NCBI GenBank assembly: GCA_018713255.1
Contig: DVFL01000014.1
Span: 1 to 64,000 of the forward strand
Source of the DNA: Candidatus Cottocaccamicrobium excrementipullorum
GTDB taxonomy: Bacteria > Bacillota > Clostridia > Lachnospirales > Lachnospiraceae
Direction of reading: 5' to 3'
Length of the DNA stretch: 64,000 nt
The position numbers and the translations under genes were made by a program. The stretch's first letter is position 1. Each line of letters opens with the position of its first letter. Below the pieces are notes generated by a model, which saw only the letters and a list, made by a program, of their open reading frames with translations, searched no databases and was not told the DNA's origin. This document shows, one piece after another, positions 1,471-3,491 of this stretch.

Positions 1471-1516
1471 AAATCCTGCATTTGTCTGGAAGATGGATAA
1501 ATGCAGGATTTTTTAT
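1471..1516 (+). terminator. Rho-independent terminator
   Basis: AAATCCTGCATTT ... AAATGCAGGATTT perfect 13-bp stem followed by T-run. Confidence 0.85.
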
Positions 1517-1576: not shown

Positions 1577-1605
1577 TTGCGAAAAAGATTGGGCCGTGTT
1601 AAAAT
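1577..1605 (+). promoter_or_regulatory. Sigma-A-like promoter for the ATPase cassette
   Basis: TTGCGA-N17-TAAAAT, then aaaggaggtc RBS before ATG 1628. Confidence 0.55.
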
Positions 1606-1627
1606 AAGGTAAAGGAGGTCAAGGATC

Positions 1628-3019
1628 ATGGCAAGAATTGTAAGATTGTCTTCGCTGTCCATTTCTAATATCAAAAATGTTAGAAATGGACGAATTATTA
1701 TGCCAAATACTAGTCGCAAGCAATTATCTTATAAGAATGCAGAAGTACTGGGATTGTATGGTCAAAATGGATCTGGAAAAACAGCGGTTATTGATACACT
1801 TTACTATTTACAAAGTATTATGATTGGGAAAGAGATCGAAGCGGAAATCGCGGATTATATTGATGCCAATAGTGATCAGGCTGAAATTGCCGTAGATTTT
1901 AATATTTTTGCGGAAGATGTTATATATGAAGCTGGATATAGGGTTGTCTTACGGAGGAGTGAACGTGGTGCGGAAATTTTTCGTGAAACCTTAAGCTGTG
2001 CGGTAAATAAAGGAACATCTAGAAGCAATAAGACTGTTTTTATGGATTATTATCGATTGGATAAAGACAATATATTTGTTCCTAAAAAGAGATTAGATGA
2101 GATTGTTGAAGCGAATGCAGAGAATAAAACTGACCTTATTGTAGCTCGAAAGATGGCGGAAAGGAGCAACTGCTCATATATTTTTGGTGAAAGCAGCAGG
2201 GAAATTTTTTGCAGGAATTATGATAACAATTTCAAACATTATGCAGAAGTAATCAAGGCCCTGTTTAAATTTGCACTGACAGATTTGTTCGTGATTCGTA
2301 ATACGCATTCAGGTGTAATATCAGCTAATTTTTTATTACCTATGGCATTTAAAGTTGAACAGAATGAAAAAGGAATGAAAGGGGACTTTGCTATCCCATT
2401 AACAAAGCCGGTTGTGTTAGATGAAGAAAGAAAAAGGCTTTTAGATACTATTGTTGAACAGATTAATATGGTTCTATTTACGATTATTCCTGGGATGAAG
2501 ATCTCTGTTCATGATTATGGAGTACAGATGCTGGACTCAGGGGAAAATGGTTATCGAGTAGAACTGGTTTCTCTTCGTGAGAACATGCCGCCGATTCCGA
2601 TACGTATGGAATCAGAAGGAATTATTAAAATTATCTCTATTTTAAATGCATTAATTCAGGCATTTGGAAATCCGTCAATTTGTCTCGCAATTGATAAATT
2701 AGACGCAGGAATTTTTGAGTACATGCTTGGAGAGTTGCTTGATATTTTTAATCATAATGCAAAGGGACAGCTAATATTTACTTCTCACAATCTTCGCGCT
2801 TTGGAGATGTTGGATAAGGATAGTATTATGTTTTCTACAACAAACCCAGACAGAAGATATATTCGAATGAAGAATGTGAAGGCTTCCAATAATCTTAGAG
2901 ATACTTATCTTAGAGGAATTACCCTTGGCGGCCAGGATGAGGTGATTTATGAAGAAACGGACAGTTTAAGGATTGCGCGTGCATTTAGAAAGGCGGGAAG
3001 AGCAATACAGCATGAATGA
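1628..3019 (+). CDS. AAA15/OLD-like family ATPase (COG1106-type)
   Basis: Walker A GLYGQNGSGKT, ABC-signature-like ESEGIIKIISIL, Walker B-like LAIDKLDAGIFEYMLGELL, switch-like FTSHN. Confidence 0.8.
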   Translation: MARIVRLSSLSISNIKNVRNGRIIMPNTSRKQLSYKNAEVLGLYGQNGSGKTAVIDTLYYLQSIMIGKEIEAEIADYIDANSDQAEIAVDFNIFAEDVIYEAGYRVVLRRSERGAEIFRETLSCAVNKGTSRSNKTVFMDYYRLDKDNIFVPKKRLDEIVEANAENKTDLIVARKMAERSNCSYIFGESSREIFCRNYDNNFKHYAEVIKALFKFALTDLFVIRNTHSGVISANFLLPMAFKVEQNEKGMKGDFAIPLTKPVVLDEERKRLLDTIVEQINMVLFTIIPGMKISVHDYGVQMLDSGENGYRVELVSLRENMPPIPIRMESEGIIKIISILNALIQAFGNPSICLAIDKLDAGIFEYMLGELLDIFNHNAKGQLIFTSHNLRALEMLDKDSIMFSTTNPDRRYIRMKNVKASNNLRDTYLRGITLGGQDEVIYEETDSLRIARAFRKAGRAIQHE

Positions 3020-3491
3020 AAATATTCATATCTCTGATGCGGATGGTGTGTATATTTCTGAGAATGATGTCATTGGAGCCGAGGTGGATGATATACAGTA
3101 TTATGAGGATCATATTGCTGCAAGAAATGTATATGCTGTCATAGAGCGCAATAAACGAAAAGGGGATATTTTATACAAACTTAGAAAAACAAAAAAGGTT
3201 CATGGCATATCATATCGAATTTATTTTAATTCCTGTAACTTGAAACATGTGCTGTATGGAGAACTTAGAAACTATTCTGACGAGGAAAAACAGATCTTAT
3301 CCGATGATTTTGCAGACAGATATGATGGAAAAGCAGGCGAATTTGTAGAATTTATATCGGATTTATCTATAGCAGTTCCAGGAACATATCAGAAAACATG
3401 GGATTATATTGAACAGAATAGTAATTCGTTAAATCGGCATTCGAATATGCATCTGATATTTGAAAAAGCACAAATGCCTGGATTGCAATGA
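3012..3491 (+). CDS. Small partner protein of the AAA15 ATPase (RloB/Toprim-like, uncertain), possibly N-terminally truncated
   Basis: ATGAATGA overlap with the ATPase stop; DADGVYI acidic motif near the N-terminus, RIYFNSCNLKHVLYGEL and NSLNRHSNMHLIFE. Family assignment is inference. Confidence 0.5.
   Translation: MNENIHISDADGVYISENDVIGAEVDDIQYYEDHIAARNVYAVIERNKRKGDILYKLRKTKKVHGISYRIYFNSCNLKHVLYGELRNYSDEEKQILSDDFADRYDGKAGEFVEFISDLSIAVPGTYQKTWDYIEQNSNSLNRHSNMHLIFEKAQMPGLQ

What the first reader, a model, noticed from the sequence alone, without database searches (positions are those of the whole stretch)
1577..3491. AT-rich two-gene AAA15 ATPase + small partner cassette: candidate defence-like system
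Seen: an AT-rich block with its own promoter (TTGCGA-N17-TAAAAT) and a terminator in front, encoding an ATPase (GQNGSGKT, ESEGIIKIISIL, FTSHN) whose stop overlaps the start of a 160-aa partner (ATGAATGA), implying translational coupling. Known: AAA15/OLD-type ATPases paired with a small Toprim/RloB/DUF4435-like partner occur in anti-phage systems such as PARIS and the RloAB pairs. Inference: this may be a related or divergent two-gene defence module placed between a signalling locus and a VOC gene.
Basis: partly seen in the sequence, partly recalled or inferred. Interest (0 to 1): 0.68.

Follow-up and report, generated by a model that had tools for sequence, protein, structure and literature searches.

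The report
Disarmed ATPase–Toprim-like defence gene pair
The two genes are a worn-out copy of a mobile two-protein module that resembles known anti-phage systems: a 222-base deletion has removed the presumed active site of the small effector and a point mutation has removed the key catalytic residue of the ATPase, and related copies show that the effector is repeatedly lost while the ATPase frame is kept.

Summary
The small gene, however, is not an intact 160-aa partner. In about 50 relatives the partner starts at the same ATG and is about 225 aa; the window copy lacks 222 bp (74 codons, in frame) just after codon 3. The lost segment is the first half of a Toprim-like domain, including the invariant Glu of VEGxSD. 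The ATPase also carries E357K, the Walker-B catalytic Glu, its only departure at columns invariant in 59 other ATPases. The partner is not RloB or DUF4435 and matches no Pfam, PADLOC, NCBIfam or PHROGs family above cut-off. A census of 75 places found 17 with the ATPase frame intact and the effector broken or absent, and none the other way round, the decay pattern expected if the ATPase restrains a harmful effector. A distant Paenibacillus plasmid with a pseudogenised effector carries the same Walker-B E→K. Best reading: a recently disarmed member of an uncharacterised ATPase–Toprim-like defence module, probably without defence activity here.

The parts
1471..1511 (+). Intrinsic terminator of the upstream GHKL kinase gene (16-nt arms, then TTTTTT)
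   Evidence: the repeat finder I1; sequence
1577..1605 (+). Promoter-like match TTGCGA-N17-TAAAAT with TG before the -10; unproven
   Evidence: match density not above shuffles
1611..1618 (+). Ribosome binding site AAAGGAGG
   Evidence: sequence
1628..3019 (+). ABC-type ATPase (AAA_21/AAA_15, AbiLi/AriA-like; Rad50/RecF/PtuA-type head), 463 aa, frame intact
   Evidence: Pfam AAA_21 E 7.5e-9; PADLOC AbiLi E 3.5e-29; AF2 model and Foldseek E to 4e-13
1656..1692 (+). 16-bp hairpin inside ATPase codons 10-22, strong only in the window copy (z -5.1)
1760..1783 (+). Walker A GQNGSGKT, intact
2609..2620 (+). ABC signature-like ESEG, intact
2696..2698 (+). E357K: Walker-B catalytic Glu replaced by Lys (AAA)
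   Evidence: Glu in 59 of 60 distinct ATPases, Lys only here; in the set of 70, Lys also in pART37
2780..2791 (+). TSHN (H-loop/switch), intact
3012..3019 (+). ATGAATGA stop/start overlap, conserved as ATGAGTGA/ATGAATGA in close relatives
3012..3491 (+). Remnant of the Toprim-like effector gene: 159-aa ORF = first 3 codons + residues ~78-225 of a ~225-aa protein
3020..3024 (+). Junction of the 222-bp (74-codon) in-frame deletion; removed beta1-alpha1-beta2-alpha2 including VEGxSD
   Evidence: DNA alignment A1, breakpoint DNA, AF2 model of a full-length relative
3036..3047 (+). Remaining DxDG motif (DADG) of the Toprim-like domain

Best explanation
Intact relatives encode a two-protein module: an AbiLi/AriA-like ABC ATPase that senses and restrains, and a translationally coupled ~225-aa Toprim-like effector, probably a metal-dependent nuclease, released on phage infection to stop growth (inferred from the PARIS/AbiL analogy). 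The module moves on plasmids and phages. In this genome it has been disarmed: a 222-bp in-frame deletion removed the first half of the effector's Toprim-like fold with its invariant Glu, and E357K removed the ATPase's Walker-B catalytic Glu (both shown in sequence; loss of activity is inferred). The effector probably went first, as in 16 other places, and the ATPase is following. SHOWN: deletion, E357K, patchiness, mobile carriage, 17:0 asymmetry. INFERRED: toxicity of the effector, defence role, order of events here.
For: Deletion; nothing matching the missing segment elsewhere in the own genome. Lost segment = beta1(E)-alpha1-beta2-alpha2; the Glu is present in 51 of 51 full-length partners covering the column, and both Asp of DxDG in 52 of 52. 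E357K unique among 60 ATPases and the window's only departure at invariant columns. Patchy: partner in 45 and ATPase in 42 of 397 family genomes, almost always adjacent; 13 and 10 of 391 class genomes. On plasmids of Ruminococcus, Lysinibacillus and Paenibacillus, a Clostridioides phage record, and a viral contig within its tail-gene cluster. AT-rich relative to flanks in 7 of 7 relatives. Census 17:0. Same E->K in pART37, whose effector is a pseudogene while its sister plasmid keeps both genes. Literature: PARIS ATPase or TOPRIM active-site mutants lose defence (PMC9122126); AAA proteins neutralise TOPRIM_OLD toxins in E. coli (PMC10440598); F. nucleatum AbiLii is toxic (PMC3985639).
Against: Toprim assignment rests on sub-threshold Pfam matches plus the E/DxD pattern; Foldseek of the model was inconclusive (best E 2.4e-3 to an unrelated fold, PARIS chain 8ux9_A at rank 8). 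No activity is demonstrated for any member. In PARIS, deleting either gene was non-toxic (PMC9122126), so toxicity of this effector alone is not assured. Both window frames are still open and the ATPase shows ordinary dN/dS against relatives (0.03-0.08), so the lesions are recent, or the product is still used.
Confidence: 0.75

Rival explanations
1. Disarmed effector but useful remnant: the shortened partner (DxDG half plus C-terminus) still binds the ATPase and acts as a decoy, regulator or dominant-negative brake, so the locus is retained by selection.
For: Deletion is in frame, as in G006 and L018; overlap kept; remaining 150 residues ~73% identical to relatives; purifying-type dN/dS for the ATPase.
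Against: Other internal deletions are out of frame (G241, G522, G309) and others are stops or 3' truncations, so frame keeping is about what chance gives (3 of 6). E357K suggests the ATPase is failing too. The native stop codon is also gone (7 extra residues).
Confidence: 0.1
2. The pair is a functional divergent defence system as it stands.
For: Open frames, coupling, family resemblance.
Against: Loss of the invariant effector Glu with half the domain, and loss of the Walker-B Glu; equivalent active-site mutations in PARIS abolish defence (PMC9122126).
Confidence: 0.04
3. Deletion and/or E357K are assembly or sequencing artefacts and the species carries an intact pair.
For: Draft genome of 42 contigs; the junction was not found in another record (viral scan).
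Against: Contig 35 is 90 kb; own-genome search found no other copy or loose segment. Comparable lesions occur in complete isolate records (pART37, Lachnospira eligens ATCC 27750 plasmid).
Confidence: 0.08
4. The ATPase has a function of its own unrelated to defence, and the small gene is dispensable, which would also give the 17:0 asymmetry.
For: ATPase kept in 17 effector-broken places, 15 of them with the Walker-B Glu; dN/dS 0.06-0.16 in two such pairs.
Against: Patchy (11% of the family), mobile, AT-rich, almost always paired; ATPase almost never found without trace of the partner (G345 and the L. eligens plasmid only).
Confidence: 0.12

Closest known systems
AbiL (AbiLi/AbiLii) abortive infection
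   Same: ATPase is best matched by PADLOC AbiLi (E 3.5e-29); two-gene order ATPase then small effector; AbiLii is described as a TOPRIM_OLD toxic effector (PMC10440598).
   Different: AbiLii is described as RloB-related (PMC10440598); our partner has no AbiLii/RloB hit and hhalign to a RloB profile is negative. Window effector truncated.
PARIS (AriA/AriB)
   Same: ABC ATPase (AriA hit E 4.5e-12) plus separate Toprim-type effector gene; plasmid/phage cargo.
   Different: Partner is not DUF4435; no solved-structure sequence match to AriB; Foldseek match only marginal. In PARIS loss of either gene is non-toxic, whereas decay asymmetry here suggests guarding.
RloA/RloB pairs
   Same: AAA15/21-type ATPase with a small partner carrying a VEG-type motif.
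   Different: Partner fails the RloB model; RloB is separately common in the same bacterial family (29 of 100 genomes).
OLD / Gabija GajA / Septu-retron PtuA ATPases
   Same: ATPase fold is Rad50/RecF/PtuA-like.
   Different: Not fused to a Toprim domain; no helicase, HNH or RT partner.

Membership tests
AbiL | AbiLi-type AAA ATPase | tested here: met
   PADLOC PDLC02335 E 3.5e-29
AbiL | AbiLii (RloB-like) partner | tested here: not met
   no AbiLii hit; RloB hhalign probability 0.2
PARIS | AAA_15/AAA_21 ATPase above Pfam cut-off | tested here: met
   AAA_21 36.5 bits, cut-off 27
PARIS | DUF4435 (PF14491) partner above cut-off | tested here: not met
   no DUF4435 hit for 17 full-length partners or for the own genome
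RloAB | RloB (PF13707) partner | tested here: not met
Toprim superfamily (intact relatives) | Invariant Glu after beta1 and DxD after beta3 | tested here: met
   E 51/51, D 52/52, D 52/52; topology
Toprim superfamily (intact relatives) | Significant profile or fold match | tested here: inconclusive
   Pfam Toprim best E 2.7e-4, below cut-off; Foldseek not significant
Toprim superfamily (window copy) | Catalytic Glu and beta1-alpha1-beta2-alpha2 present | tested here: not met
Active ABC ATPase (window copy) | Walker-B catalytic Glu | tested here: not met
   E357K
Anti-phage defence system | Protection against phage | not testable with these tools
   needs plaque assay
Toxin-antitoxin-like pair | Effector toxic alone, neutralised by ATPase | not testable with these tools
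   17:0 decay asymmetry is indirect support only

The most novel reading that the evidence does not exclude
The family is a distinct, unmodelled ATPase-Toprim-like system in which the ATPase is an obligate guard of a self-toxic effector. Hosts escape its cost by a reproducible route: break the effector first, then make the guard ATPase inert by the same Walker-B Glu-to-Lys change, seen independently in the window and in Paenibacillus pART37.
Probability: 0.3. Interest if true: 0.6.

Novelty: new variant of a known kind. Interest (0 to 1): 0.42.

Why it matters
The window copy is a natural double mutant, useful mainly as a warning: a defence-system caller or a reader would count it as a candidate system although it is very probably inert. 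The wider result is more useful. A module present in about 11% of sampled genomes of this bacterial family has a partner that current models miss, and its decay pattern (effector lost, ATPase frame kept, 17:0) gives a direct, cheap test of which protein is the toxin and which the guard, a point on which PARIS (not toxin-antitoxin by deletion) and the AAA–TOPRIM_OLD pairs (toxin-antitoxin by assay) currently differ.

Tried and rejected
(1) Partner as RloB or DUF4435: rejected by profile scans and hhalign. (2) DUF4276: weak (E 1.4e-3, hhalign 7%); not accepted. (3) PADLOC Cas11b hit of the 159-aa protein (E 9.5e-4): weak, in one other member only, treated as chance. (4) In-frame deletion as special: window, G006 and L018 are in frame but G241, G522 and G309 are not, so dropped. 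(5) Empty site in the genus: the adjacent VOC gene is absent from the 10 other genus genomes and kinase matches are only 31-34% identical, so no empty site could be shown. (6) Missing segment elsewhere in the genome: none. (7) Fold search of the full-length partner: inconclusive in PDB and viral libraries. (8) Same deletion junction in viral contigs: none. (11) A regex check used wrong offsets for four loci; redone.

Full report
1. Observation. The block described at 1577-3491 is real. ORF 1628-3019 (463 aa) and ORF 3012-3491 (159 aa) overlap by ATGAATGA. A terminator for the upstream kinase gene lies at 1471-1511 and a good RBS at 1611-1618. The block has GC 0.354 against 0.477 for the window and is its most AT-rich 1.9-kb stretch; GC3 is 0.29/0.26 against 0.54/0.53 in the two neighbouring genes. 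The promoter match is present but matches of that quality are as frequent in shuffles, so it is unproven.

2. The ATPase. Pfam AAA_21 is above cut-off (36.5 bits against 27). PADLOC's best model is AbiLi (E 3.5e-29), then AriA (4.5e-12). An AlphaFold2 model (mean pLDDT 78) matches Rad50, RecF and retron/Septu PtuA heads. Walker A, ESEG and TSHN are intact. At Walker B the window reads IDKLDAG. All ten relatives in the first alignment have DE at this place, and in 60 distinct ATPases the residue is Glu in 59 and Lys only here. Across the columns invariant in the other ATPases (36) this is the window's only departure. In Rad50/SMC/ABC-type ATPases this glutamate is the catalytic base (established knowledge), so loss of hydrolysis is expected but not shown.

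3. The partner. Relatives have a ~225-aa protein that starts at the same place, MSEKKVVVFIVEGPSDEAALG…. DNA alignment shows the window lacks exactly 222 bp just after the third codon; the rest is about 73% identical to relatives. Nothing matching the missing 74 codons exists elsewhere in the genome. In 52 full-length partners the Glu of VEG is kept in 51 of 51 that cover the column, and both Asp of DxDG in 52 of 52. The predicted order beta-alpha-beta-alpha-beta with E after beta1 and DxD after beta3 is that of a Toprim domain; Pfam Toprim matches are weak (10 of 17 members, best E 2.7e-4) and below cut-off, and Foldseek is inconclusive. I therefore call it Toprim-like. The deletion removes beta1-alpha1-beta2-alpha2, so the remnant cannot form that active site.

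4. Distribution. The partner is in 45 and the ATPase (E ≤ 1e-60) in 42 of the same 397 family genomes, almost always side by side. The bacterial family is not named by the tool; relatives' record titles say Lachnospiraceae. In the genus the pair or its remnants are in 3 of 11 genomes. Copies lie on plasmids of Ruminococcus albus, Lysinibacillus and Paenibacillus and in a Clostridioides phage record. The closest ATPase relative (84% identity) is on a viral contig directly after the major tail protein gene and a phrog_709 gene. Seven of seven relatives' cassettes are more AT-rich than their flanks. This is an accessory mobile module, not a core function.

5. Decay census. I rebuilt both profiles and classified 75 places, with lesions located by tblastn. 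ATPase frame intact but effector broken or absent: 17 (window; G006; L018; G028; two loci of G383; G122; G180, whose ATPase is cut by the contig end; G165; G241; G204; G320; G345; G522; G622; Paenibacillus pART37; the Lachnospira eligens ATCC 27750 plasmid). ATPase broken but effector intact: 0. Both broken: 2 (G309, G231). Effector remnants without ATPase: 4, one of them (G692) seen only. One (G375) is undecidable at a contig end; the remaining 51 are intact in both genes, several with the ATPase start cut by the edge of the stretch. If lesions fell by gene length the chance of 17 of 17 in the effector would be about 6e-9, and 8e-6 at even odds. The breakpoints differ, so most events are independent. 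Ascertainment was by both genes, so an intact effector next to a broken ATPase would have been seen. Two cases come from complete isolate records. The best example is a pair of related Paenibacillus plasmids: pY5S7-1 has both genes, pART37 keeps the ATPase (91% identical, dN/dS 0.16) with an effector pseudogene at the same place. The asymmetry is what a guard-and-toxin relation predicts; an independent role for the ATPase is the main rival.

6. Parallel Walker-B change. Among 70 distinct ATPases only two lack the Walker-B Glu: the window (AAA) and pART37 (AAG, sister GAG). Both are Glu→Lys and both have a broken effector. pART37 has one further invariant-column change. This was noticed after the fact and rests on two cases; it is suggestive, not proof, of selection against an active guard once the effector is gone.

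7. How it most likely works. From published systems: in PARIS the ATPase AriA sequesters the Toprim nuclease AriB and releases it on sensing a phage protein, and AriB cleaves tRNA (PMC12409363, PMC11455837); mutating the ATPase or TOPRIM catalytic residues abolishes defence (PMC9122126); AAA proteins neutralise TOPRIM_OLD toxins in E. coli (PMC10440598); one AbiLii is toxic in E. coli (PMC3985639). By analogy, intact members here are ATPase-guarded effectors that arrest infected cells. This is inference; the target of the effector is unknown. The window copy lacks both active sites and is predicted to be inert.

8. Filing. It works like AbiL/PARIS but fails their partner definitions (no AbiLii/RloB, no DUF4435), so it is not filed as a member of either. 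It is a variant of the known kind 'ABC ATPase + separate Toprim-type effector', with a partner family absent from the libraries searched. Recency: the window ATPase shows the same low dN/dS as its relatives, so the lesions are young relative to family divergence; synonymous sites are near saturation, so no finer dating is possible.

Noticed in passing
window 1656-1692: Near-perfect 16-bp hairpin within ATPase codons 10-22 (RNA fold z -5.1, no shuffle as stable); of seven relatives only L011 has a shorter version. Could dampen expression or be a by-product of template switching.
   Followed up: partly
window 3470-3491: The effector remnant runs 7 residues (AQMPGLQ) past the usual family end (HLIFEK), so the native stop codon has also been lost.
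   Followed up: no
L024:2384-5675: Intact pair inserted in a phage tail-gene cluster directly after the major tail protein and phrog_709 genes: a prophage-cargo example of the module.
   Followed up: partly
L138:3898-5430 and L023:4427-6501: Two syntenic Paenibacillus plasmids, one with the intact pair and one with ATPase E->K and an effector pseudogene: a ready-made natural comparison.
   Followed up: yes
G383 (L048, L068): One genome carries two diverged copies of the pair, and in both the effector is broken while the ATPase frame is intact.
   Followed up: partly
L061 (G320): Effector with in-frame stops; its ATPase has G361D just after Walker B (IDEFDSD), another possible second-step ATPase lesion.
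   Followed up: no
L025:465-1982: HNH endonuclease on a viral contig next to another copy of the pair; its N-terminus looks like an IscB/RRXRR-type protein (from memory, not tested).
   Followed up: no
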